The notes beneath the pieces were generated by a model. The model ran no database searches, was not told the DNA's origin, and was given only the letters and a program-made list of their open reading frames with translations. A stretch of DNA of 10,793 nt from Planctomycetota bacterium (lineage in GTDB: Bacteria; Planctomycetota; Planctomycetia; Pirellulales; Pirellulaceae), in NCBI GenBank assembly GCA_024277285.1, contig JAJRVM010000027.1, positions 1 through 10,793 of the forward strand, in the 5' to 3' direction. Numbering within the stretch: the first letter of the stretch is position 1; every line of letters begins with the position of its first letter. Below are positions 1-10,793 of this stretch, one piece after another. Both the position numbers and the translations under genes were made by a program.

Positions 1-1166
1 AAACCATCCATGGCCGTGCGGATCGTCGCTCGATCGTCGGTGAAATCAAACGGGCTCCAGAACGGAACAGCCAGCAAGCACGTGTAGGCCAAGATCACCA
101 ACACCCAAATACTCGGTGACCATCGCAGCCGAGATGTGTGGTTTGCTTCAGAGCTCGGAAGTCGCTTGCCCCACCACGTGCGCATTATCGCCACGCCGAT
201 GGTTACCCCGATCGAACCAAACAGAATATTGGTAATTGACGTGAAACGACTTTGGACAAACAGCTGGGCAAGTTCGATGCCCAAAGCGATCAGCACGCCC
301 AGCGAAATCGCGTCCGGCCAGGTACGAACGGGCCGGTCCCGAGCCGTATTCCAGACGGCCGCGAACATCCCAATCGGAATGAAAACGACCACGTCTCGCA
401 AGACATCCAGCCAGCGAGCCCAGTGTAACGGATAGTACTGGAACGGAAGCCACTCGATCTGACCACGGAGCAACTTCGTCCCAAGGTCTGAAATACTGAT
501 CGTCAGATCGAACGGCATCATGCTGTAGATTACCAGGCCGATCAAATACGCCTCGAGTAGCCAGATCAGACGCCGGTCCGGCCGGTCGACGACCGAATAC
601 GACCGGATCCAGTCTGTGACGGCCGTGCCGAGGAACTGCCAGATCAGTATGCCAACCGAAGTGCCGACCGCTTGTGCCATGACGTCCAGTTTCGACGGCA
701 CTCGAGTCGCTGTCCACAACTGGAAGAACTCGTTGCAAAGCGCCAGCAGTAGGCAGCAGATGAAAACCGGGACCGCAGCGACCAACGGGCTCCAACGCGA
801 CTTGCGTCCCGCGCCCAGCGTTCCCATCCAGAAGAAACTGACTGGGATCATAAAGAGGATATTGGTTACCACATCGGTTCGTGAGACGTACTCGGGGACC
901 AGTGGCAGCTGGTCGAAGTTTCGCACTGCGTCGAGAAACGGGACGGGCTTGAAACGGGGCGACTGGACGGACCCATAAAAAGCGAACGCGGTAAAGCAGA
1001 TTGCGAACGCCAGATATAGGCGCCGAACACTGGTGTGGGATGCGGTATATTCGGCAGTGGACGCTTCGCGTGGCTGTCTGCACAGAATTACGCGGCCGGC
1101 CGCAACGCAAAGCGTAACAACCATCAGGGCAGAACAGATAAGAATCAGACTTGGGGTCGTCGGCAT
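1..1166 (-). CDS. Multi-pass membrane protein with tandem VanZ-like units (3' end outside window)
   Basis: No stop occurs from the ATG at 1166 to the window edge (388 codons), so the C terminus is missing. Hydrophobic stretches at residues 10-29, 50-65, 130-148, 169-182, 205-217, 258-272, 289-304, 313-328 and 353-369 indicate an integral membrane protein. The VanZ-family signature (E-x-x-Q, then R, then D/N, then a Gly-rich helix) is seen twice: E146/Q149, R155, D161 and G168/G172, and again E298/Q301, R307, N313 and G317/G320. Before each lies a TD/LD-V-x-x-(N/D)-x-x-x-F-(M/I)-P segment (98-108 and 253-265). A third unit seems to begin at 368-376 (PFWSPFDFT), matching MMPFDLT at 215-221. VanZ proteins are linked to teicoplanin resistance and envelope processes, and VanZ-like proteins are common beside exopolysaccharide and exosortase genes. 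The molecular role here is unknown. No clear ribosome binding site supports the start, and translation could begin further upstream. Confidence 0.85.
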   Translation of the reverse strand, partial: MPTTPSLILICSALMVVTLCVAAGRVILCRQPREASTAEYTASHTSVRRLYLAFAICFTAFAFYGSVQSPRFKPVPFLDAVRNFDQLPLVPEYVSRTDVVTNILFMIPVSFFWMGTLGAGRKSRWSPLVAAVPVFICCLLLALCNEFFQLWTATRVPSKLDVMAQAVGTSVGILIWQFLGTAVTDWIRSYSVVDRPDRRLIWLLEAYLIGLVIYSMMPFDLTISISDLGTKLLRGQIEWLPFQYYPLHWARWLDVLRDVVVFIPIGMFAAVWNTARDRPVRTWPDAISLGVLIALGIELAQLFVQSRFTSITNILFGSIGVTIGVAIMRTWWGKRLPSSEANHTSRLRWSPSIWVLVILAYTCLLAVPFWSPFDFTDDRATIRTAMDG

Positions 1167-1220
1167 GTTTTGACAGTCGAGCGGTATTGGATATTGTTGA
1201 TCGGCCGAAAGCAACACAGC

Positions 1221-1462
1221 AGAAGCCACCTGCCCTTCGCACCCGCAGAAGCCGCCTGCTTCAGCTGGCGGAGCCGTCACACAAACAACCTACACGACAC
1301 GGCCGAGACCCCGCCTGCTCTTCGCACCCGCAGAAGCCGCCAGCTTTAGCTTGCGGAGCCGTCACACAAACAACCTAACACGACACGGCCGAGACCTCAC
1401 CTGTTCTTCGTACCCCCAGAAGCCGCCAGCTTTAGCTGGCGGAGAAGTCACACAAACAACCT
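1221..1462 (+). repeat. Three copies of a palindromic ~85-bp intergenic repeat (subfamily A)
   Basis: Hairpin cores lie at 1252-1271, 1337-1356 and 1423-1442, 85-86 bp apart and all in one orientation. Each is preceded by CAGAAG and followed by a GTCACACAAACAACCTA block. The third core, CCGCCAGCTTTAGCTGGCGG, is a perfect 9-bp stem with a TT loop. The first has one T/T mismatch and the second one C/T mismatch. Between units is a CACGACACGGCCGAGACC...TTCGCACCC segment. The array lies between two minus-strand genes, so it would be transcribed on the minus strand if they share a transcript. It resembles REP/BIME-type elements in organisation; I do not know a name for it. Confidence 0.85.
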
Positions 1463-1526
1463 ACGGACCGTTCTCCCTTTCCTTCTCCCGTTCTTTGTTG
1501 GCTGTTCCGTTCGATCTCTGTTTGGG

Positions 1527-1697: not shown

Positions 1698-2207
1698 GGC
1701 CCGAGGAGTCGTCCGTAACGTAAATGTCCAGTGGCGTTGCGTGCCCGAGACTGTGCGACTTGGGGCCGTGCCGACTTTGCTCGAATGAACTCGCAAATAC
1801 TGCGCGGCCCGGTCGCATGTGGCTGTTTTCCCTGCCACAACTCGGGAAATGTCCCATAGGTCAACGGGTTGCGTCAAGTGCGATCAGGGGAGGTTCTGGG
1901 CCGGGCCGCCGAGTCCAAGGGCGGAAAAGAGCGGAATCCGGCTCCAGCGGCCCCCGATATTGTTCCGATATTCCCAAATAGTTGGACTGCGCTCATCGCT
2001 TATGCGCACGTTTGTCCCTAGAATTGCGAATATGTGACCAGGCACAACGCCAAGCGGCCTGCGGGGCGGCTAGCAAAGCTGCCTGGGATGCCGCCGAGAC
2101 GGAAAGAGCGAAGCCCGGTTTGTGAAAGGCGTCGAGTAACGATCGGGCAAGAAAATAGACCGAACAGATCGGTGGCGAACGGTAATACAAAAGAGGGGGT
2201 GTTTCCC
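1698..2207. promoter_or_regulatory. Divergent intergenic region with 11-bp-phased direct repeats
   Basis: This 510-bp gap separates the minus-strand 56-aa gene from the plus-strand secreted-protein gene. I see no convincing gene in it. It holds two copies of CCGATATT at 1954-1961 and 1965-1972, exactly 11 bp apart (about one helical turn), as would suit a pair of regulator half-sites. A TAGAAT box at 2019-2024 matches a -10 element at 5 of 6 positions, but I see no good -35 at the right distance. The 3' part (about 2036-2125) looks structured and is listed separately. The promoter assignment is weak; the direct repeat is plainly visible. Confidence 0.35.
2036..2125 (+). ncRNA. Possible structured leader, weakly GEMM-I (c-di-GMP) like
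   Basis: The leader of the secreted-protein gene contains CACA (2043-2046), GCCAAGC (2049-2055) and GCAAAGC (2073-2079). The 17-nt spacing between the last two, and their order, resemble the Vibrio Vc2 c-di-GMP-I aptamer (CACA, GGCAAACC, 17 nt, GCAAAGC), as recalled from memory. The intervening arms 2055-2059 and 2064-2068 pair at four of five positions around a TGCG loop. GGCGGC and GCCGCC (2065-2070, 2088-2093) could also pair. Against the assignment: the canonical GAAA tetraloop and the GGCAAACC consensus are not intact, and the third helix is unclear. Treat this as a structured-leader candidate only. Confidence 0.25.
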
Positions 2208-2606
2208 ATGAAGCGAGTATCAAGTCTTGTCGTGATTGCGATGGCCGGGTTCGTGTTGGTCAGCGGTGCGGACCGAGTGGACGCTCAGGCACCGCAAAAG
2301 CCACTTAAGTACTCGCAGCGTTATGCGCCTCGTCGTCCCACGCTATCTCCATATCTGGACTATTTTCGACGCGATGTGGGGCTGACCGATCCTTATCACG
2401 CGTACATCCGACCGCGCCGGCAGCTGAACAGCCAGCTGCGTACCCAGCAAGCTTTGCTCAATCGGCAAGGTCAGGACCTAAGGCGAGTGAATGACGATCT
2501 TCGCCAGTTTCGGGGCCAGCGGTTCCGAGGCGTGACCGCCGCACCGACCGGAACCGGCTCGACGTTCATGAATTACTCGCACTATTATTCATCGGGCGGC
2601 CGCTAG
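2208..2606 (+). CDS. Small secreted protein with Arg/Gln-rich helix, planctomycete type
   Basis: The 132-residue product starts at the ATG at 2208, with a purine-rich GAGGGGG stretch 8-14 nt upstream as ribosome binding site. The frame is open further upstream, but that part is GC-rich leader. Residues 1-26 are a classical signal peptide (MKR, hydrophobic core 7-19, likely cleavage near VDA-Q at 26/27 or AQA at 28). The mature part has the segment YAPRRPTLSPYLDYF (39-53), an aromatic YHAYIRPRRQ (63-72), then a polar, probably coiled-coil helix rich in Gln/Arg/Asn (70-102), and a Ser/Gly/Tyr-rich tail. I recognise the RPTLSPYL-type segment as recurrent in small exported planctomycete proteins, but no function is established. 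It may associate with the envelope or matrix made by neighbouring genes; that is inference. Confidence 0.75.
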   Translation: MKRVSSLVVIAMAGFVLVSGADRVDAQAPQKPLKYSQRYAPRRPTLSPYLDYFRRDVGLTDPYHAYIRPRRQLNSQLRTQQALLNRQGQDLRRVNDDLRQFRGQRFRGVTAAPTGTGSTFMNYSHYYSSGGR

Positions 2607-2644: not shown

Positions 2645-3093
2645 AAGAAGCCGCCAGCTTCAGCTTGCGGAGCCGTCACACAAACACCCTACGCCACGCG
2701 GCCCAGAAGCCACCTGCCCTTCGCACCCCCAGAAGCCGCCTTCTTTAGAAGGTGGAGCGGTCACACAGTGCACCTACCGACGCCCTGCCCTCCCACATCA
2801 GCGCACCGCAGAAGCCGCCTTCTTTAGAAGGTGGAGTGGTCACACAGTGCACCTACCGACGCCCTGCCCTCCCACATCAGCGCATCGCAGAAGCCGCCTT
2901 CTTTAGAAGGTGGAGTGGTCACACAGTGCACCTACCGACGCCCTGCCCGCCCACATCAGCGCACCCCCAGAAGCCGCCTTCTTTAGAAGGTGGAGCGGTC
3001 ACACAGTGCACCTACCGACGCCCTGCCCGCCCACATCAGCGCACCGCAGAAGCCGCCTTCTTTAGAAGGTGGAGCAGTCACACAGTGCACCTA
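2645..3093 (+). repeat. Tandem array of six palindromic repeats between convergent genes (one subfamily A, five subfamily B)
   Basis: The first unit (core 2651-2670, CCGCCAGCTTCAGCTTGCGG) is subfamily A, like the array at 1221-1462. It is followed 85 bp later by five subfamily B units with core CCGCCTTCTTTAGAAGGTGG at 2736, 2815, 2894, 2974 and 3053, 79-80 bp apart. The B core forms a 9-bp stem with a TT loop and one G-U wobble when read as plus-strand RNA. Linkers between B units (AGTGCACCTACCGACGCCCTGCCC..CCCACATCAGCGCA) are nearly identical, differing at a handful of sites, so the array grew by recent tandem duplication. It fills the space between two genes whose 3' ends face each other and could serve as a bidirectional terminator or transcript stabiliser. 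Open frames through it are artefacts. Confidence 0.9.
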
Positions 3094-3126: not shown

Positions 3127-3918
3127 CTATGTATCGTGACCTTGCTTCTTCAATCCGGCCAGTTTCGGCAGGTACCAGACGATCCCCAGCCATTCATGAG
3201 CCACTCGGTTCATGTCGCGTGCCGCCCAGGCGCAGGGCACCAGTGCAAACGGTCCGTTGTCGAAAGACCGTGCTCGATAATAGGCCCCGCGTGGGAACGT
3301 CTGGATCCCGACCGCATCAAAGCACATGATCGAGCGGCGTAGATGAGTGGCCTCGGTGACCAGAACCACGCGTTGGATTTTGCGTTGGTCCAGCAGTTTG
3401 GCCACATTCACGGCGTTTTCAAACGTCGTGCGAGACTCGGCTTCCTGCACAATATCGGCCGGTGGAACTCCCAGCTGGACTAGGAAATCGGCCATTACCT
3501 GGGCGACGATGGGCTGTTTTGGGTCCGGGACCACTTGCCCCCCGGATACGAATACGGGACAACCGCCCGATTTCCGATACAGTTCGGCGCCCAGCAGGCA
3601 GCGGTACAGTGTGTCCTGGCCCGGTTCCGCCTGTTGCCGGTTTGGACCGACCAGCCGCACGCTACCTCCCAAAATGACAATCGCCTGGGCGTGCTCTGGA
3701 AAAGTACGAACGGGCGGGTATTGCCACTCAAGCGATCCGGCGGCCAGGTAGGATATTGCCGGGGTGGATAGCAGGCCAAGCAGGAAGAACAGGCTGGTGA
3801 ACAGCCCAAGTCGTCTAGTGCGCAGCGACCCACGCGACCAGAGCGATATCAACGCGATGGCGCAGAGGAGGAATGCAAACGTGAATGGTTCAAGTAGATT
3901 GACGAGGAATCGGTACAC
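3127..3918 (-). CDS. DUF218 / YdcF-like (ElyC/SanA family) membrane protein
   Basis: The 263-residue call uses the GTG at 3918; a GTG at 3927 would add three residues, and a TTG at 4041 would give an unlikely basic extension. Two N-terminal membrane helices (about 5-27 and 38-60) precede a DUF218 domain (about 77-225). Family hallmarks are visible: VILGG (81-85), the SGG turn (125-127), the acidic stretch with ESRTTFENA (161-169), and the TEATHLRR motif (188-195) ending in the typical HxxR. ElyC, SanA and YdcF relatives sit in or outside the inner membrane and influence peptidoglycan or lipid-carrier metabolism in Enterobacteria; their biochemical activity is poorly defined. Homologues are often encoded with exopolysaccharide and exosortase genes, which fits this locus. 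The start overlaps the preceding small membrane-protein gene by about 29 bp, suggesting translational coupling. The 3' end faces the repeat array. Confidence 0.92.
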   Translation of the reverse strand: MYRFLVNLLEPFTFAFLLCAIALISLWSRGSLRTRRLGLFTSLFFLLGLLSTPAISYLAAGSLEWQYPPVRTFPEHAQAIVILGGSVRLVGPNRQQAEPGQDTLYRCLLGAELYRKSGGCPVFVSGGQVVPDPKQPIVAQVMADFLVQLGVPPADIVQEAESRTTFENAVNVAKLLDQRKIQRVVLVTEATHLRRSIMCFDAVGIQTFPRGAYYRARSFDNGPFALVPCAWAARDMNRVAHEWLGIVWYLPKLAGLKKQGHDT

Positions 3919-4066
3919 TAGAACCACGCCGCTTTCGCTTGTTGCTTCTTCGCCGCATGGAAAACGACTCGGCGACCGCCAGGATCCCGAACGTAACCAA
4001 CGGTGCCACAACCGCGAAGAACAGAAAAACCAGTAGCGCAAATAGGGATTGGTCCATGTTGGTCAT
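3890..4066 (-). CDS. 58-aa single-helix membrane protein overlapping the DUF218 gene
   Basis: This small frame runs from the ATG at 4066 (preceded by AGAGGG about 8 nt upstream on the minus strand) to a TGA at 3890. A second ATG in frame lies at 4057. The product begins MTNMDQSLFALL, has one strongly hydrophobic segment at residues 8-32, then a very basic cluster (MRRRSNKRKRRG, 37-48), predicting a single membrane helix with the C terminus in the cytoplasm by the positive-inside rule. It ends inside the start of the DUF218 gene in a different frame. The hydrophobic-then-basic design, a plausible ribosome binding site and the overlap argue that it is real. No homologue is recognised. It may be a small partner or stabiliser of the DUF218 protein (inference). 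Confidence 0.6.
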   Translation of the reverse strand: MTNMDQSLFALLVFLFFAVVAPLVTFGILAVAESFSMRRRSNKRKRRGSSVPIPRQST

Positions 4067-4857: not shown

Positions 4858-5943
4858 ATGTCCAGAGGAAAATCGAGTCATACAACGTTGGCCTCATATC
4901 ATGTTGCACTGGCACTGGTTGCTGGTGCCGTGATTGCGTTATCCGGTTGCCACTTGTCTCAACGCGGCAAGCACACACCACCGGCTCCGCCGATTGGGGG
5001 CGATATTCCGCGCGAGTTAAGTAAGACAATCCTGCCGACGTATCGGATCGAGCCGCCGGATATCCTGGTGATCGATGCACTGCAGGTGATACCGAAGCCG
5101 CCTTACACACTGCGTGCGTTCGACCTGTTGGCCGTGAACGTGATGGGCACATTGCCGGACGCGCCGATCGAAGGCCAATTCCCGGTCGAGCCTGGTGGCG
5201 CGGTGAACCTTGGGATGCCTTACGGTACTGTCAAGGTGTCGGGACTGTCGGTCGAGGATGCCAAGGCGGCGATCGAAAAACATCTGGCCCAGACACTGCG
5301 CGAGCCAATGGTTAACGTCTCCCTGTTGCAATCTGCGGGCAAACAGCAGATCGCGGGCGAGCATCTGGTCGGTCCGGATGGAAACGTCAACCTGGGCAGC
5401 TATGGCAGCGTCCCGGTGGTTGGTCTGACGTTGGCCCAGGCGAAGGAAGTAATCGAGCATCACCTGAAACAGTTCCTGGAAGACCCGGAAGTGGCGGTCG
5501 ATGTTTTTGCATACAACAGCAAGGTTTATTACGTGGTCACGCAAGGGGCCGGCATGGGCGACTCCGTGTCCAGGTTCCCGGTCACGGGCAATGAAACCGT
5601 GTTGGATGCAATCTCGAACATCAACGGCCTGACCGAGGTTGCTTCGAAGAAAATATGGATCGCACGTCCAACACCCGTAGCCGGCGAGGTCCAGATCTTG
5701 CCGGTCGATTGGAACGCGATTACCGGCCAGGCCCAAGCGTCGACCAACTACCAGGTCCTGCCTGGCGACCGAGTTTTCATAGCTGAGGACAAATGGGTCG
5801 CGTTCGATACGTCGCTCGGCAAACTGTTGGCACCGATCGAACGAGCGATGGGCTTCACGCTGCTAGGTGTGAACACCGCATCGCGGCTTACCGGCAAGGT
5901 GCTGCTGAACAGGAATGGCGTTGGTGGGTTCGGTGGGTTCTAG
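4858..5943 (+). CDS. Wza-like polysaccharide export lipoprotein (Poly_export/SLBB)
   Basis: The 361-residue protein begins at the ATG at 4858. An N-terminal signal with lipobox LSGC (C31) marks it as a lipoprotein. The first Poly_export region opens with YRIEPPDILVID (62-73) and continues through FDLLAVNVMG (89-97), FPVEPGGAVNLG (108-119) and VSGLSVEDAKAAIEKHL (127-143). A second repeat has GEHLVGPDGNVNLGSYG (167-183), VVGLTLAQAKEVIEHHL (187-203) and DPEVAVDVF (209-217). An SLBB-like segment follows (223-310), with LPGDRVFIAED at 301-311. Proteins of this family form the outer-membrane channel or periplasmic part of capsule and exopolysaccharide secretion. The C-terminal part (AFDTSLGKLLAPIERAMGFTLLG, 315-337, then a Gly/Phe tail) differs from Escherichia coli Wza and is, as far as I recall, typical of planctomycete versions. 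It is probably cotranscribed with the next gene, 72 bp downstream. No partner Wzc-like kinase or polymerase lies in the window. Confidence 0.93.
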   Translation: MSRGKSSHTTLASYHVALALVAGAVIALSGCHLSQRGKHTPPAPPIGGDIPRELSKTILPTYRIEPPDILVIDALQVIPKPPYTLRAFDLLAVNVMGTLPDAPIEGQFPVEPGGAVNLGMPYGTVKVSGLSVEDAKAAIEKHLAQTLREPMVNVSLLQSAGKQQIAGEHLVGPDGNVNLGSYGSVPVVGLTLAQAKEVIEHHLKQFLEDPEVAVDVFAYNSKVYYVVTQGAGMGDSVSRFPVTGNETVLDAISNINGLTEVASKKIWIARPTPVAGEVQILPVDWNAITGQAQASTNYQVLPGDRVFIAEDKWVAFDTSLGKLLAPIERAMGFTLLGVNTASRLTGKVLLNRNGVGGFGGF

Positions 5944-6015
5944 ATCAGCCCGCGACCGACGCGTGACGTTTTCCAAAACCAAAATAGACAACTAACCAGA
6001 AGCGTGATCAACACC

Positions 6016-7131
6016 ATGATTCATAAATCACGATTCTTGACGACACCGGCTCTCACACTGGCTGTGATGATCGTTACGTCATTCGGCTGCAACTATCGTC
6101 AGCTTGCCAAGCCGAATGTCAGCCAGATCATGCATTGGCCGTTTGTACCATCCAATTCGGTTGGTCAGTTGGACGCAGGATGCGATCGTGCCGTTGTCGA
6201 ACCGGCATGTTACGGCTACCACCCGACGTGCTGGCGTCCGTGGCCGGAAGGGTGTGACGACTGCCTGGAGCAAGCGCCGGCCGGGTGCATGCCATCGATG
6301 GGACCGCCGGAAGAGATGATGATCCCTCAGGAGGCCGAGGTACCGCTGCAGCCGCTGATGGAAGACGATCTGAAACAGCTGCCGGACGCGCCCCAGCCGC
6401 CGAAGGCAGCCGAGAGTCTGTTGAAAAAGCAGACGACCGTGCCGCAGTACCCCAAAACAAGTCCGGCGAAGAAAGCCGTTCCGAAGCCGACGCCGAAGAA
6501 GCCGCTGCCACCCGCTCCCGTGAAGACCGACAAGAAATCGGCAGCGGCAGCGACACCAGCCGCCAAACCTGCGCCGAAACCCGGTGCGACGAAGCCTGTG
6601 CCGGCTCTGCCCAAGCTACCGGCGATCCCGACCAGAAAACCGAAAGTCACTCCGGCGGTTCCCGCCGTTCCGACACCGGTCAAAAAAGGCGAGGGCACCA
6701 AGGACAAGCAGCTGAAAAACAGCGGAATGCCGAGCGACCTGTTTCGTGTTCCCGTGCCCAACGGGAAAACACAGCTGGAAGCACTTCCGGTCGGTATCCC
6801 GAAAAGCTTGGAGAATCCACGTGTGTGGACGGGAACGGCCCAGGTTCGGCCGCCAGTCAGTAAACGCGTTCGCACGTCACTTCAGCGCGTGGCAAAGCGA
6901 CAGCCGGAAATGAAAACCAAACGGCAGAAACTCGGCAGTCGTGGCCTGCTCGCCAAAAGGACTTTCACGCCGATCCGGTACGGGGACTATATCGACACGG
7001 CCGATCATCCACTGCCGGTGTCCACGAAGCTTCGACGGGAAGAGCCGACGATGGACGTCATTCCCGTGACGGCGACGCGAAAAATCCACGCCGCTGTAAG
7101 CGACGACCCCAACTGGCAATTCCAACGCTGA
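6016..7131 (+). CDS. Pro/Lys/Ala-rich lipoprotein with Cys-rich WRPWP motif
   Basis: I choose the ATG at 6016 (371 residues); a GTG at 6004 would add four. The signal peptide ends in a lipobox-like TSFGC (C25). After it comes a short Cys-rich domain holding CYGYHPTCWRPWPEGC (65-80) with further cysteines at 56, 83 and 91. A long, probably disordered linker rich in Pro, Lys and Ala (about 127-240) follows, then a basic C-terminal part with Arg/Lys clusters (about 280-320) ending in WQFQR. The GYxPTCWRPWPE element recurs, in my recollection, in exported planctomycete proteins of unknown function. Its position 72 bp after the export gene suggests a shared transcript and a periplasmic or outer-membrane accessory role in polysaccharide export. 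The basic linker could bind an acidic polymer (inference). Two hairpins follow the stop. Confidence 0.85.
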   Translation: MIHKSRFLTTPALTLAVMIVTSFGCNYRQLAKPNVSQIMHWPFVPSNSVGQLDAGCDRAVVEPACYGYHPTCWRPWPEGCDDCLEQAPAGCMPSMGPPEEMMIPQEAEVPLQPLMEDDLKQLPDAPQPPKAAESLLKKQTTVPQYPKTSPAKKAVPKPTPKKPLPPAPVKTDKKSAAAATPAAKPAPKPGATKPVPALPKLPAIPTRKPKVTPAVPAVPTPVKKGEGTKDKQLKNSGMPSDLFRVPVPNGKTQLEALPVGIPKSLENPRVWTGTAQVRPPVSKRVRTSLQRVAKRQPEMKTKRQKLGSRGLLAKRTFTPIRYGDYIDTADHPLPVSTKLRREEPTMDVIPVTATRKIHAAVSDDPNWQFQR

Positions 7132-7732: not shown

Positions 7733-8494
7733 ATGTCGCATGCCATCGCCCTTGCTCCAGCCGTACGTAAACCGAAGGATCCGCCGGTCTACGCGGTGGG
7801 TCAAACCGCATCGGAGCGTGAAACGGCTTTTCAGTTGGTCTACCAATCGTACTTGCGGTCGGGTCTTTGTCGCCGGAATCGGCACGCCATGCGAGTGACT
7901 CCGTACCACTTATTGCCGACAACGACCGTATTCAACGCTTTCGTGGCGGACACCGTTGTTTCGACGATGACACTGATCGAGGACGGGGACCTGGGGATTC
8001 CGATGGAATCGATGTATGCCGACCAGATTGCCGAACGTCGAGCGGCGGGGCTACGGGTTGGTGAGGTCTCCTGTTTGGCGGACCGGCGGAGCAATTGCCG
8101 ACGGTTCCTGGACGTCTTTTGCAAACTAGCTCGATTGATGGCCCAATACGCAAGGTTTCACGGCCTGGATCAACTGCTGGTTGTTGTCCATCCTCGGCAC
8201 GCGCGATTCTACGAGCGGTTTCTCGGTTTCCAGCCGATTGGCGGACTGACCGAATGCCCGCACGTTCAGAATAATCCGGCCGTTGCGTTGTGTCTGGATT
8301 TTGCACAGGTTGATCGCGAGCCACCGGACTGTTACGACAGTTTTTTTGGCATGCCCATTCCGGCAGACGAGTTGACTCGGCCCAGACTCAGTGCTCGCGA
8401 ACTGGTTCGTTTGGGCGAGCTGGTGGACGACTGCTTTGAGCAAGCAGACACGATGCATCACTCCAGTACCGAGCCGCGAGTCTGTACCGTGTAG
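7733..8494 (+). CDS. FeeM-like N-acyl amino acid synthase / exosortase-associated acyltransferase, copy 1
   Basis: This 253-residue protein matches the GNAT-fold family that includes FeeM-type N-acyl amino acid synthases and the PEP-CTERM/exosortase-associated acyltransferases, relatives of LuxI-type autoinducer synthases. Visible landmarks: an N-terminal FQLVYQSYL helix (33-41), the R-x-T-P-Y-H-L-LPTTTVFNA segment (54-69), the STMTLIEDGDLGIPMESMY strand and turn (77-95), GEVSCLA (110-116), a hydrophobic helix (126-141), the highly characteristic VVHPRHARFYERFLGF (151-166), and a final NPAVALCLDF strand (181-190). FeeM enzymes join a fatty acyl group from acyl carrier protein to an amino acid; the substrate here cannot be told. 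A strong AGGAG ribosome binding site supports the start. No signal peptide, so cytoplasmic. About 60 residues after the GNAT core form a divergent tail. It is one of two paralogues. Confidence 0.88.
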   Translation: MSHAIALAPAVRKPKDPPVYAVGQTASERETAFQLVYQSYLRSGLCRRNRHAMRVTPYHLLPTTTVFNAFVADTVVSTMTLIEDGDLGIPMESMYADQIAERRAAGLRVGEVSCLADRRSNCRRFLDVFCKLARLMAQYARFHGLDQLLVVVHPRHARFYERFLGFQPIGGLTECPHVQNNPAVALCLDFAQVDREPPDCYDSFFGMPIPADELTRPRLSARELVRLGELVDDCFEQADTMHHSSTEPRVCTV

Positions 8495-8555
8495 GCGGAT
8501 GCGGCAAACGCGAGAATGCAAAGCGAACAGTGATTCGCAGTGCACATAGCAATGT

Positions 8556-9067
8556 GCTCGGCAAGCGGGACATACCGGGACCACCGAGCGATCAAGGTCG
8601 CCGTTTTCATTTCACATTTGTCATTTCCCACTTTGCACTTTGCACTTCGATCGTAGGCCGGTCGCGCAGTAGCGAAACCGGTCCGAGTTGCAGCTCCAGA
8701 CCTCTTGCGGCGTCTTGGATTACGCCCGGTCCCGCTCGGCAAGCGGGACCCACCCGGACCGCCCACGATCAATGCCGCCGTTTTCATTTCACATTTTGCA
8801 CTTTGCATTTACCACTTTGCATTTTGCATTTCCCACTTTGCACTTCGATCGTAGGCCGGTCCGGCAGTAGTGAAACCGGTCCGGGTTGCAGCTCCAGACC
8901 TCTTGCGGCGTCTTGGATTACGCCCGGTCCCGCTCGGCAAGCGGGACCCACCCGGTCCACCTTGCGACGAAAGCCCCCGTTTTCCTTTCACATTTTGCAT
9001 TTTGCATTCCCCACTTTGCACTTTGTACTTTGCATTTACCACTTACCATTTACCACTTACCATTTAC
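8556..9067 (+). repeat. Long repeats with three phased CAYTTNN heptad arrays
   Basis: Three successive units start with GCTCGGCAAGCGGGA at 8556, 8734 and 8932 (periods 178 and 198 bp). Each contains a pyrimidine-rich array with a strict 7-bp period (CATTTTG, CACTTTG, CATTTAC, CATTTCC and similar): 6 heptads at 8608-8649, 9 at 8785-8847 and 12 at 8984-9067. Between arrays is a conserved block (GATCGTAGGCCGGTC...TTGCAGCTCCAGACC...GGATTACGCC), nearly identical in the two complete copies. It ends in a 9-bp hairpin GGTCCCGCT/AGCGGGACC (8728-8750, 8926-8948). The size difference between units comes mainly from heptad number. No coding potential is credible; the element fills the gap between the two acyltransferase genes. 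Confidence 0.9.
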
Positions 9068-9323
9068 CTCCTCGTCCATCTTCTGGCTAAGTCGTTTCGG
9101 CACACCCGAGCTATGGATGCAACCCGTTATCTCTATAGTGTTTATGGCGATTGTGGATATGCTCGGTTCAACCGGGTTACTGCTATTGACGCCCTTACCA
9201 GGCTCACGTACTCTCGCCGTCCCGCCATCATTTGGCAGGGCGAAGTCAGGCTGGGTTTGGATAATCCAGCGGCTTGACGATCCGAGGGGTAGGATAGCGT
9301 TTCGTGAACGTACGAGGATTCGC
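9068..9323 (+). other. Upstream region of acyltransferase 2, no gene seen
   Basis: The frame of the second acyltransferase is open back into the heptad repeats, but this stretch reads as non-coding: it has no recognisable domain and its upstream part is repeat DNA. TTGACG at 9274-9279 with TAGCGT 15 bp further on is a poor promoter candidate. GAGG (9314-9317) is the ribosome binding site for the ATG at 9324. Confidence 0.5.
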
Positions 9324-10124
9324 ATGGATAGCGAACTAGATCAGCGTCCGCCTGGTGAAAATGCTGCGACGCCGCGTCCCGTGGGTCGACACATCGCGGT
9401 GATGTGCCGGGACGATCTCGGCAAAGCGGCTCGATTGGAGACGGGCATCGCTCAGGACCGCGAGCAGTTGCACGCATGTTTTCGCCTGGTCTACGAGAAC
9501 TACGTGTCGCTGAAGTACATCGTGCCCAGTCAGGCGGAAATGATGTACCAGCGTACGTTCGGGCTGCCCACGAGTCGTACAATTGTTGCTCGGGATTCCG
9601 ATCGACGGATTACCGGGACACTGACTGTTGTGGGCGATAATTCGTTGGGTCTGCAGATCGAGACGACGTATTCGGACGAAGTGGACGCGTTGCGCGCCGG
9701 CGGATGTCGTTTGGCCGAGGTGACGTGTCTGGCAACGCATTCCGATCGGACGACTGATATATCAGTGTTTTTCGCATTGACCCGGTTCCTTTTCCAATAT
9801 GCGACGTGGGCCGGATACAGCGACCTGTTGTTGGCGATCCATCCTCGTCACGCGCGGGTCTACACGCGATTCTTCGGAGCGGTTCAGTTTGGCCCCGTTC
9901 GACCCCATCGGTTGGTGCGTGGCAGTCCGGCGGTCGCCTGTCGGATCGACTTACAGCGTGCCGTGCAGTACATCTCGCCGGTAATTCGCGGCTGGTATGT
10001 TGACGACCGCATAACGCCCGGTTTGTTCGAGACGCCTGCGATGCGTCTTGCCGACCACAAGCACTTTTGTGCCCAGGTCGGGTTACCTTTCGTTCCCGGC
10101 CAGTCCACGGATAAAGCTGCTTGA
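9324..10124 (+). CDS. FeeM-like N-acyl amino acid synthase / exosortase-associated acyltransferase, copy 2
   Basis: The 266-residue call starts at ATG 9324, 6 nt after GAGG; the open frame extends upstream into repeat DNA and is not believed. The protein aligns along its length with copy 1: FRLVYENYV (53-61), ITGTLTVVGDNSLGLQIETTY (96-116), AEVTCLA (131-137), a hydrophobic helix (147-160), AIHPRHARVYTRFFGA (171-186) and SPAVACRIDL (201-210). It has about 20 extra N-terminal residues before the domain. Differences from copy 1 at family-typical sites are visible: the usual G-(I/L)-P-M-(D/E) turn is GLQIE here, and the LGF after the HPRH motif is FGA. This suggests a changed acyl or amino-acid preference, though activity is probably kept because the HPRH motif and the EV(S/T)CLA strand remain. 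The tail (211-266) differs entirely from copy 1. It is cytoplasmic and probably acts with the regulator encoded next. Confidence 0.86.
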   Translation: MDSELDQRPPGENAATPRPVGRHIAVMCRDDLGKAARLETGIAQDREQLHACFRLVYENYVSLKYIVPSQAEMMYQRTFGLPTSRTIVARDSDRRITGTLTVVGDNSLGLQIETTYSDEVDALRAGGCRLAEVTCLATHSDRTTDISVFFALTRFLFQYATWAGYSDLLLAIHPRHARVYTRFFGAVQFGPVRPHRLVRGSPAVACRIDLQRAVQYISPVIRGWYVDDRITPGLFETPAMRLADHKHFCAQVGLPFVPGQSTDKAA

Positions 10125-10514
10125 GCACTGCCCTTAAGCGCGCAGCAGACTGCCCCTCGCATTTTGCCGGCGCTCTGTTCTCTCTGCTTCCTCCTGTTCA
10201 CGTTCTTCCGCTAGTGTGTCTTGGGTCGATGGCACCGTGGCCCGTGGGAAGCCAAAGGTGCCGCGTCAGGAAAACTGTGTACCGAGTTGGAGTTAATTGC
10301 CACCGATGGCATTGGGTATCTTCCAGGCACGCGTTCTACCCCTAAATCAGCTACCCTAAAGTACCTAACTCATATTCCTTGTGTTATTTCTCATGTTGCC
10401 GTAGAATCACAGGCACTATCTATTCGCAAGCACCGTTCGTTGTGCGGGATCTTGGCATTTATCGATTGTCGGCCGGTGGAAGGCGAAGCACTTTGATTTT
10501 GTTGGGGCCAAAAT
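10125..10514 (+). other. 390-bp gap before the response regulator, with a stem-loop
   Basis: No convincing gene. GGCACC (10231-10236) and GGTGCC (10257-10262) enclose a nested GGC/GCC pair and could fold as a stem-loop about 105 bp after the acyltransferase stop. TGCCA-CCGA-TGGCA (10298-10311) is a small dyad. The A+T-rich part around 10330-10440 may hold the regulator's promoter; TTGCCG with TCTATT 17 bp later is only a 4/6 plus 4/6 match. Confidence 0.4.
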
Positions 10515-10793
10515 ATGCCACCCGCTATTCACTTGGGGGTTGTGCATCGCAGTCGCCTTTTCCGCGAGTGTCTTGCGACTGCGCTGTCTGCTGATCCCGA
10601 TTTTCGTGTCACGCAGTTCGAGCATACCAGCGGCCCTTTGCTGGGCGAGCTGGAGGCGGACGTTTGGATTGTCGACCTTGGGTTACCGGGCGAGCAGGCT
10701 ATTGAGATGATCCAACAGTTTCGCGACCGGGGGTGTTCGACCAAGGTGATTGCGTTGATCTCTGCCGTGGCAGACGAAGCGATCGTGCAGTGT
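10515..10793 (+). CDS. NarL/FixJ-type response regulator receiver domain, atypical (3' end outside window)
   Basis: The ATG at 10515 opens a frame that runs off the window after 93 codons. The visible part is a receiver-like domain: strand 1 at IHLGVVH (5-11), a helix LFRECLATALSADPDF (15-30), the phospho-acceptor strand ADVWIVDLGLPGEQA (48-62) with D54 as the likely phosphorylation site, helix 3 with AIEMIQQFRDRG (62-73), and KVIALIS (77-83) with S83 at the conserved Ser/Thr place. NarL-family regulators normally have an Asp-Asp or Asp-Glu pair after strand 1 (VDDHxLFREGL). Here that place reads VVHRSRLFRECL, so the acidic metal-binding pair is replaced by His-Arg. A C-terminal LuxR-type helix-turn-helix is expected by family but lies beyond the window. 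Being next to the acyltransferases it may regulate, or respond to, their product (inference). Confidence 0.78.
   Translation, partial: MPPAIHLGVVHRSRLFRECLATALSADPDFRVTQFEHTSGPLLGELEADVWIVDLGLPGEQAIEMIQQFRDRGCSTKVIALISAVADEAIVQC

What the first reader, a model, noticed from the sequence alone, without database searches (positions are those of the whole stretch)
7733..10793. Candidate acyl-amino-acid signalling module: two FeeM-like synthases plus an atypical response regulator
Two paralogous LuxI/FeeM-fold acyltransferases lie in tandem, followed by a NarL-type receiver protein, beside a Wza-type export gene. FeeM-type enzymes make long-chain N-acyl amino acids, and related GNATs occur with exosortase/exopolysaccharide systems. 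A duplicated synthase with its own regulator, and no exosortase visible, would be a lipid-signal circuit controlling the envelope locus. Domain calls are seen directly; the circuit is inference.
Basis: partly seen in the sequence, partly recalled or inferred. Interest (0 to 1): 0.72.

Follow-up and report, generated by a model that had tools for sequence, protein, structure and literature searches.

The report
Paired lipid-amino-acid synthases with pseudo-receiver regulator
A planctomycete stretch carries two ancient, different copies of an enzyme family that joins fatty acids to amino acids, next to an unusual regulator that seems to have lost the usual phosphate switch; relatives of the same regulator sit beside these enzymes in other planctomycetes, including a known producer of such lipids.

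Summary
Both proteins are FeeM-family N-acyl amino acid synthases (PF21926, 166 and 135 bits against a cut-off of 27). TIGR03694 is not matched. They are not a recent duplication: 33% identical, in two separate clades. FeeM2's clade usually sits just before a DevC-like exporter gene. The third gene is cut by the window end. It belongs to a pseudo-receiver subfamily, here called RR-A: in 120 listed relatives the Asp-Asp pair has become His-Arg, the switch Lys mostly Glu, and Asp is kept. RR-A lies within 1.7 kb of a FeeM, same strand, in nine relatives, very probably including the published stieleriacine cluster of Stieleria maiorica; only one of the nine was found independently of the seeds. 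The window's closest FeeM-pair relatives lack RR-A. Best reading: a stieleriacine-like N-acyl amino acid locus with a cluster-situated, phosphorylation-independent regulator that probably senses a small molecule. 'Lipid signal controlling the envelope locus' is possible but unproven. Unexpected: most FeeM2-type synthases end in Ala-Ala, like the hosts' tmRNA tag, suggesting a built-in degradation tag.

The parts
4858..5943 (+). Wza-type polysaccharide export lipoprotein (Poly_export)
   Evidence: PF02563 90.5 bits, cut-off 28; homologue upstream of the FeeM pair in L101 and L102, and near FeeM in L049, L067, L092
6004..7131 (+). proline/lysine-rich lipoprotein-like protein with a YGYxPTxWRPWPxxC motif; a weak look-alike follows Wza in L102
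   Evidence: no Pfam or NCBIfam family at E<=1; motif and position in L102, phmmer E only 0.019
7733..8494 (+). FeeM1: N-acyl amino acid synthase, ends in ...RVCTV
   Evidence: PF21926 165.7 bits; 574 proteins at E<=0.001, the window's own included; groups with FeeM1 of L068 and L104, then L102, L103, L069, support 92/79
8556..9074 (.). intergenic repeats: about 199-nt units with TTTGCA heptads, between the two synthases
   Evidence: find_tandem_repeats and the repeat finder
9324..10124 (+). FeeM2: N-acyl amino acid synthase of the clade that is usually followed by a DevC-like exporter gene in relatives
   Evidence: PF21926 134.6 bits; clade support 99/89, 7 of the 8 other rows have DevC downstream
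10113..10121 (+). C-terminal Lys-Ala-Ala of FeeM2: ssrA-like candidate degron
   Evidence: 27 of 41 other listed FeeM2-type proteins end in AA; controls 0 of 120 RR-A, 0 of 91 DevC/DevA/DevB/OEP; host tmRNA tags end in LALAA or LAMAA in 4 of 6 tmRNA loci read
10515..10793 (+). RR-A: pseudo-receiver of a NarL/FixJ-type regulator, cut by the window end
   Evidence: Response_reg 23.4 bits; 32-36% identical to FeeM-linked RR-A proteins; scores 104.7 bits against the RR-A profile, which contains it
10545..10550 (+). His11-Arg12, in place of the Asp-Asp metal-binding pair
   Evidence: alignment with canonical receivers
10674..10676 (+). Asp54, the retained phospho-acceptor position
   Evidence: alignment

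Best explanation
The locus makes N-acyl amino acids (fatty acid from acyl-ACP joined to an amino acid by an amide bond) in a Pirellulales bacterium. It is a two-synthase relative of the stieleriacine (NasY) type loci. FeeM1 and FeeM2 are ancient, separately kept paralogues, so they probably use different acyl or amino-acid substrates. FeeM2 probably feeds a DevBCA-like tripartite exporter, as in its clade, although none is seen within the window. RR-A is the cluster-situated regulator: a DNA-binding protein of NarL architecture whose receiver has lost the Mg-binding acidic pair, the Ser/Thr and the switch Lys, and carries a conserved His-Arg-Asp-Glu set. I infer that it is not switched by a histidine kinase but by a ligand, most likely the pathway's own product or acyl precursor (compare JadR1 and RedZ), giving autoregulation. 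Shown: the families, the fold of FeeM2, the residue changes, and linkage to FeeM in a subset of lineages. Inferred: catalytic activity, substrates, ligand, DNA targets, export, and (for the window's own regulator) the HTH and the Glu. The confidence is for locus type plus a regulator not run by a kinase; the ligand step alone I hold near 0.4.
For: FeeM family by profile, sequence and predicted fold. Tree of 92 FeeM rows: window FeeM2 in a clade of 9 (99/89) where 7 of the 8 others precede DevC; window FeeM1 in another clade. RR-A linkage: 9 relatives within 1.7 kb of FeeM (distances between open frames), 9 of 9 on the same strand as the nearest FeeM. Eight of these were profile seeds; the ninth, G477, came from a separate genome search. 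Co-occurrence: 9 of 10 RR-A genomes are among 47 FeeM genomes of 396 (Fisher 2e-8); 7 of 7 among 38 of 241 in one family, a sample that overlaps the first. Pocket: H 118 of 118, R 101 of 118, D 117 of 120, K to E 111 of 120.
Against: 38 of the 47 FeeM genomes have no RR-A. The nearest FeeM-pair relatives lack it: their best matches are canonical D-D-D-S-K receivers. One RR-A copy in G296 has no FeeM within about 10 kb, one in G006 lies by Wza with no FeeM in the 15 kb read, and G352 has RR-A but no FeeM. The retained Asp leaves phosphorylation by another route conceivable, and 13 of 120 relatives keep Ser/Thr. The window's regulator is cut and only 32-36% identical to the others. FeeM2 differs from FeeM1 and 2g0b at a conserved site (Q-I-E-T where FeeM1 has P-M-E-S), so its activity is less certain. 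Ligand binding is an analogy only.
Confidence: 0.68

Rival explanations
1. [quoted passage not shown] It shares the enzyme part with the best explanation, so the odds overlap.
For: FeeM fold close to AHL synthases; regulator beside synthase; Wza near FeeM in L049, L067, L092, L101, L102 and near an RR-A in L123; the tag-like FeeM2 tail would suit a switchable signal.
Against: No receptor, target promoter or response is shown; in the fetched loci no relative has Wza, FeeM and RR-A together; stieleriacine A1 acted on another species' biofilm largely independently of LuxR (PMC7293339, passages seen), which says nothing about self-sensing.
Confidence: 0.2
2. Plain secondary-metabolite or surfactant production: N-acyl amino acids are antimicrobial or surface-active products, and RR-A is a pathway activator that is constitutively active and controlled only by its own expression. 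It too shares the enzyme part with the best explanation.
For: Stieleriacine A1 has moderate activity against Gram-positive bacteria (PMC7293339, passages seen); a DevC-like gene lies within 1.5 kb downstream of 24 of 92 FeeM rows, in 20 loci, which suits bulk export; for several pseudo-receiver regulators no mechanism is established (PMC12632262, passages seen).
Against: The conserved His-Arg-Asp-Glu set in 120 relatives looks like a maintained site rather than decay.
Confidence: 0.35
3. RR-A is a general envelope regulator and its place beside FeeM in the window is incidental.
For: Three of 11 RR-A copies of the order sample are not next to a FeeM; closest FeeM-pair relatives lack it; spacing of 390 bp.
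Against: Nine other loci with RR-A within 1.7 kb on the same strand (eight are seeds) and strong co-occurrence, not corrected for kinship.
Confidence: 0.17
4. Some or all of the module is decaying (the two synthases separated by repeats, the regulator degenerate).
For: 829-bp gap with repeats.
Against: Full-length ORFs with family-conserved residues; the regulator's 'lost' residues are a conserved subfamily signature.
Confidence: 0.05

Closest known systems
FeeM / N-acyl amino acid synthases (PF21926; PDB 2g0b)
   Same: Whole-domain profile match; same predicted fold for FeeM2; E-V and P-[RK]-H motifs shared by FeeM1, FeeM2 and 2g0b, and P-M-[ED]-S-x-Y shared by FeeM1 and 2g0b
   Different: FeeM2 is only 20-22% identical to 2g0b in the structural match and has Q-I-E-T-T-Y at the P-M-[ED]-S-x-Y site; all 27 FeeM1-type rows of A2 keep the P. 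Two ancient paralogues side by side; no feeL-type carrier gene was looked for
Stieleriacine loci of Stieleria maiorica and S. neptunia (NasY; PMC7293339, PMC12479983)
   Different: The window's two FeeM fall in other clades; ThiF, nitroreductase and methyltransferase genes of the stieleriacine pathway were not among the window ORFs scanned
Atypical response regulators with pseudo-receivers (JadR1, RedZ; review PMC12632262)
   Same: Receiver lacking conserved catalytic residues, tied to a small-molecule pathway
   Different: NarL/GerE type, Asp kept, and a conserved His-Arg / Glu replacement set that I did not see named in the passages read; no ligand known
DevBCA-type ABC exporters (TIGR01185, TIGR02982, TIGR02971)
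   Same: Gene order permease-ATPase-membrane fusion after FeeM in relatives; Dev models are the best NCBIfam hits for the permease and the ATPase
   Different: The Dev models score below their curated cut-offs in the two loci scanned; the fusion protein instead passes the broad RND_mfp model. Not within the window
TIGR03694 exosortase-associated acyltransferase
   Same: Recalled as a GNAT-like acyltransferase of exosortase loci
   Different: No match at E<=1 for either protein

Membership tests
FeeM N-acyl amino acid synthase (PF21926) | Profile score over the curated cut-off | tested here: met
   165.7 and 134.6 bits against 27
FeeM N-acyl amino acid synthase (PF21926) | FeeM fold | tested here: met
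   FeeM2 model: 2g0b chains are the six best PDB matches, TMt 0.81-0.88; FeeM1 was not modelled
FeeM N-acyl amino acid synthase (PF21926) | Enzymatic N-acylation of an amino acid from acyl-ACP | not testable with these tools
   Needs expression and mass spectrometry
TIGR03694 (exosortase-associated acyltransferase) | NCBIfam model match | tested here: not met
   Absent at E<=1 for both
Stieleriacine-type BGC | NAS gene with ThiF, nitroreductase and methyltransferase genes nearby (PMC12479983) | tested here: inconclusive
   None among the nine window ORFs scanned, but the window ends 0.7 kb after FeeM2, so genes beyond it are unknown
Pseudo-receiver / atypical response regulator (definition in PMC12632262: lacks any of the five conserved residues) | Loss of at least one of D, D, D, S/T, K | tested here: met
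   Window: H, R, D, I, K position not visible
NarL/FixJ (GerE) response regulator | C-terminal GerE HTH | tested here: inconclusive
   Beyond the window end; present in the 7 FeeM-linked relatives scanned, 3 RR-A and 4 RR-B
Canonical two-component response regulator | Asp-Asp, Asp, Ser/Thr, Lys active site | tested here: not met
   Three of the four visible positions replaced
LuxI AHL synthase | Closest relatives are AHL synthases | tested here: not met
   The only solved-structure sequence hit at E<=1 is FeeM 2g0b
ClpX C-motif-1 (ssrA-like) degron | C-terminal -xAA with free carboxylate | tested here: met
   FeeM2 ends KAA; 27 of 41 other listed FeeM2-type proteins end AA; list of motifs seen in PMC9775585
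ClpX C-motif-1 (ssrA-like) degron | Degradation in vivo | not testable with these tools
   Needs a turnover assay

The most novel reading that the evidence does not exclude
A feedback-controlled acyl-amino-acid switch: RR-A is a receptor whose receiver pocket was rebuilt (His-Arg-Asp-Glu) from phosphate switch to small-molecule sensor for the synthase's product or acyl precursor, and the synthases carry ssrA-like C-terminal tags so that ClpXP clears them quickly, which together would make production sharply reversible.
Probability: 0.2. Interest if true: 0.78.

Novelty: new variant of a known kind. Interest (0 to 1): 0.52.

Why it matters
N-acyl amino acids of planctomycetes are known products. 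Beyond the unexplored 'putative transcriptional regulator' of PMC7293339, no regulator or turnover mechanism for them turned up in my searches: 'N-acyl amino acid' with 'response regulator' and 'planctomycet' (0 papers), 'pseudo-receiver' with 'N-acyl amino acid' (0), 'N-acyl amino acid synthase' with 'ClpXP' (0); the held library misses most subscription papers. A pseudo-receiver subfamily with one conserved replacement set, tied to a pathway of known product in a genus where nas knock-outs have been made (PMC12479983, section 7 read), makes the open question of how bacterial pseudo-receivers are switched directly testable.

Tried and rejected
TIGR03694 membership: rejected. Recent duplication of the synthases: rejected (33% identity, separate clades). 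LuxI identity: rejected. Rfam (gathering threshold) and tRNA features in the window: none. Two window ORFs (2034-2606 and 6004-7131) have no Pfam family at E<=1. G124:C21 was dropped from the RR-A count because its receiver is canonical D-D-D-T-K. RR-A's second copy in G296 and the copy in G006 were examined for context and told as unlinked. A first gene caller by codon use missed genes, both FeeM of the window among them, and was replaced by stop-to-stop ORFs, so distances between genes are between open frames. A shared operator motif upstream of FeeM and RR-A was not sought. FeeM1 was not modelled. VIA-align of the RR-A model gives receiver domains. Contig-length coincidences between FeeM and RR-A hits over 3 kb outside the seeds (8091, 21194, 95194) are weak evidence, because only 160 contig lengths of FeeM hits (119, 41) and those of the 120 listed RR-A hits were compared.

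Limits of the linkage statistics: the RR-A profile A3 was built from regulators found in FeeM loci plus the window. Eight of the nine linked relatives are therefore seeds; only G477 is independent. Fisher tests ignore kinship, and the two samples overlap. In one search only the best seven receiver candidates per genome were scored (12, up to 24). The Ala-Ala control counts use the last letters of open frames, a few of which may be cut by contig ends. Among FeeM2-labelled frames in the fetched loci, the window's included, 5 of 9 end in Ala-Ala, fewer than in the database list.
Full report
What is there. The window carries, on the + strand, a Wza-type export gene (4858-5943), a lysine/proline-rich lipoprotein-like gene (6004-7131), FeeM1 (7733-8494), FeeM2 (9324-10124) and the first 93 codons of a receiver protein (10515 to the end). 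FeeM1 and FeeM2 match PF21926 over its whole length with 165.7 and 134.6 bits, cut-off 27; both find FeeM 2g0b as the only solved relative by sequence at E<=1. A model of FeeM2 (pLDDT 89) has the six 2g0b chains as best PDB matches, and AHL synthases appear further down among other GNATs. The receiver scores 23.4 bits, below Pfam's own cut-off.

The pair is old. FeeM1 and FeeM2 are 33% identical. In a tree of 92 FeeM rows from Pirellulales loci and the window, window FeeM2 falls in a clade of nine with support 99/89. Seven of the eight other rows of that clade have a DevC-like permease gene downstream on the same strand; the eighth (L105) does not. Window FeeM1 groups with FeeM1 of L068 and L104, then L102, L103 and L069 (92/79, not a starred branch). 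Of the eight FeeM2-clade relatives, four (L074, L101, L102, L103) have another FeeM upstream on the same strand, three (L068, L104, L105) have one within 2.5 kb on the other strand, and one (L100) has its second FeeM on another contig. The two types differ at a site near the active fold: all 27 FeeM1-type rows of A2 have P-x-E, as in P-M-E-S, where the window's FeeM2 has Q-I-E-T. Overall 24 of 92 rows (20 loci) have a DevC-like gene within 1.5 kb downstream. In the two loci scanned the permease, ATPase and membrane fusion proteins match DevC, DevA and DevB models below NCBIfam's cut-offs. AMP-ligase, reductase, FAD oxidase, TolC-like and NusG-like genes accompany some loci. In the order sample, 66 of 396 genomes have a PF21926 match at E<=0.001, 47 of them with best E below 1e-28.

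The regulator. Using the 93-residue window protein as a probe in 60 fetched FeeM loci, related proteins appeared near FeeM in L052, L061, L063, L071, L075, L079 and L086; the profile then added L064. Three RR-A members scanned are receiver plus GerE proteins, and the model of one shows that layout. A profile (A3) finds 12 copies in 11 of 396 genomes. One (G124:C21) has an ordinary D-D-D-T-K receiver and was dropped, leaving 11 copies in 10 genomes. Eight copies, all profile seeds, lie within 1.7 kb of a FeeM. A search of 241 genomes of one family, overlapping the first sample, found one non-seed copy, G477; it also lies between FeeM genes. All nine are on the strand of the nearest FeeM. Against this, G296's second copy has no FeeM within about 10 kb, G006's copy lies near Wza, NusG and a homologue of the 2034-2606 protein but with no FeeM in the 15 kb read, and G352 has RR-A without any FeeM. 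Co-occurrence: 9 of 10 RR-A genomes are FeeM genomes, against 38 of 386 others; in the 241-genome family 7 of 7 against 31 of 234; in a 119-genome family 3 of 4 against 9 of 115. Kinship is not corrected for. Most FeeM genomes (38 of 47) lack RR-A. So do the window's nearest FeeM-pair relatives: in G001-G005 and G391 the best matches (113 bits or less) read D-D-D-S-K, that is canonical, and G016 has none at E<=1e-24. So the regulator is a recurrent, not a universal, partner.

The pocket. In the 120 listed database relatives (of 232 at E<=1e-60), aligned with two canonical receivers, the Asp-Asp pair is His (118 of 118 with a letter) and mostly Arg (101 of 118), Asp is kept (117 of 120), Ser/Thr is mostly Val or Ala (102 of 120; kept in 13) and Lys is mostly Glu (111 of 120). 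The window has His, Arg, Asp and Ile; the Lys position is beyond its end. Under the published definition this is a pseudo-receiver (PMC12632262, passages seen). That such a set is conserved argues for a maintained function other than Mg-dependent phosphorylation. JadR1 and RedZ, which bind end products, are precedents named in that review. A second, more degenerate regulator type (RR-B) stands 0-58 bp, between open frames, upstream of FeeM in five loci (L050, L052, L059, L062, L064).

Link to a known product. A protein of RR-A type on a 9,894,293-base contig is labelled Stieleria maiorica, the length of G296:C1, so L086 is very probably the stieleriacine locus: four synthases are reported there (PMC7293339, section 8 read) and four are found. 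The RR-A frame stands 79 bp from one of them. The paper mentions a putative regulator and transporters without following them up. In S. neptunia, deletion of nasY1 brought stieleriacines close to the detection limit (PMC12479983, section 7 read); that paper's main text does not contain the word regulator.

An unexpected tail. Of 42 listed FeeM2-type proteins, 28 end in Ala-Ala (27 of 41 without the window's own). In the top 32, Ala is last in 30 and second-last in 29, while no residue reaches half at positions -3 to -15. In the FeeM1 list 82 of 120 end in Ala or Val and 19 in Ala-Ala. None of 120 RR-A and none of 91 DevC, DevA, DevB and TolC-like frames end in Ala-Ala. Among FeeM2-labelled frames of the fetched loci it is 5 of 9. 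Four of six related tmRNA loci give tags ending LALAA or LAMAA; one gave an implausible tag and one none. This looks like a ClpX C-motif-1 tag (motif list seen in PMC9775585). The window's FeeM2 ends KAA, its FeeM1 CTV. Degradation itself is untested.

Verdict. The enzymes are new members of a known family; what is new is the regulator subfamily's repeated partnership with them and the conserved tail.

Noticed in passing
window 1226-1463 and 2646-3093: Tandem 79- and 86-nt units with the palindromic core GCCGCCNNCTTTAGNNGGYGG; six exact core hits in the window and none in the other 74 fetched loci scanned, some of which overlap.
   Followed up: partly
window 8556-9074: Three roughly 199-nt intergenic repeats with TTTGCA heptads between FeeM1 and FeeM2; the doubled heptad occurs in none of the other 74 loci scanned.
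   Followed up: partly
L050:752-1969, L052:7596-8789, L059:3772-4512, L062:4907-5647, L064:10678-11325: RR-B: a second, more degenerate pseudo-receiver plus GerE regulator immediately upstream of a FeeM gene that is itself followed by DevC.
   Followed up: partly
window 2034-2606: Small secreted-looking protein without a Pfam family; weak homologues (40-63 bits) lie near Wza in L049, L067, L092 and L123.
   Followed up: no
window 3-1280 and 3127-4041: VanZ-family and DUF218/ElyC-like membrane genes on the - strand upstream.
   Followed up: no
L007:773-1318: FeeM-like protein in a contig labelled Proteobacteria (LUTEI1), the only non-planctomycete label among the seven loci.
   Followed up: no
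L123:6918-11351: In G006 an RR-A gene shares a region with Wza, NusG and a canonical sigma-54-type response regulator with its histidine kinase.
   Followed up: no
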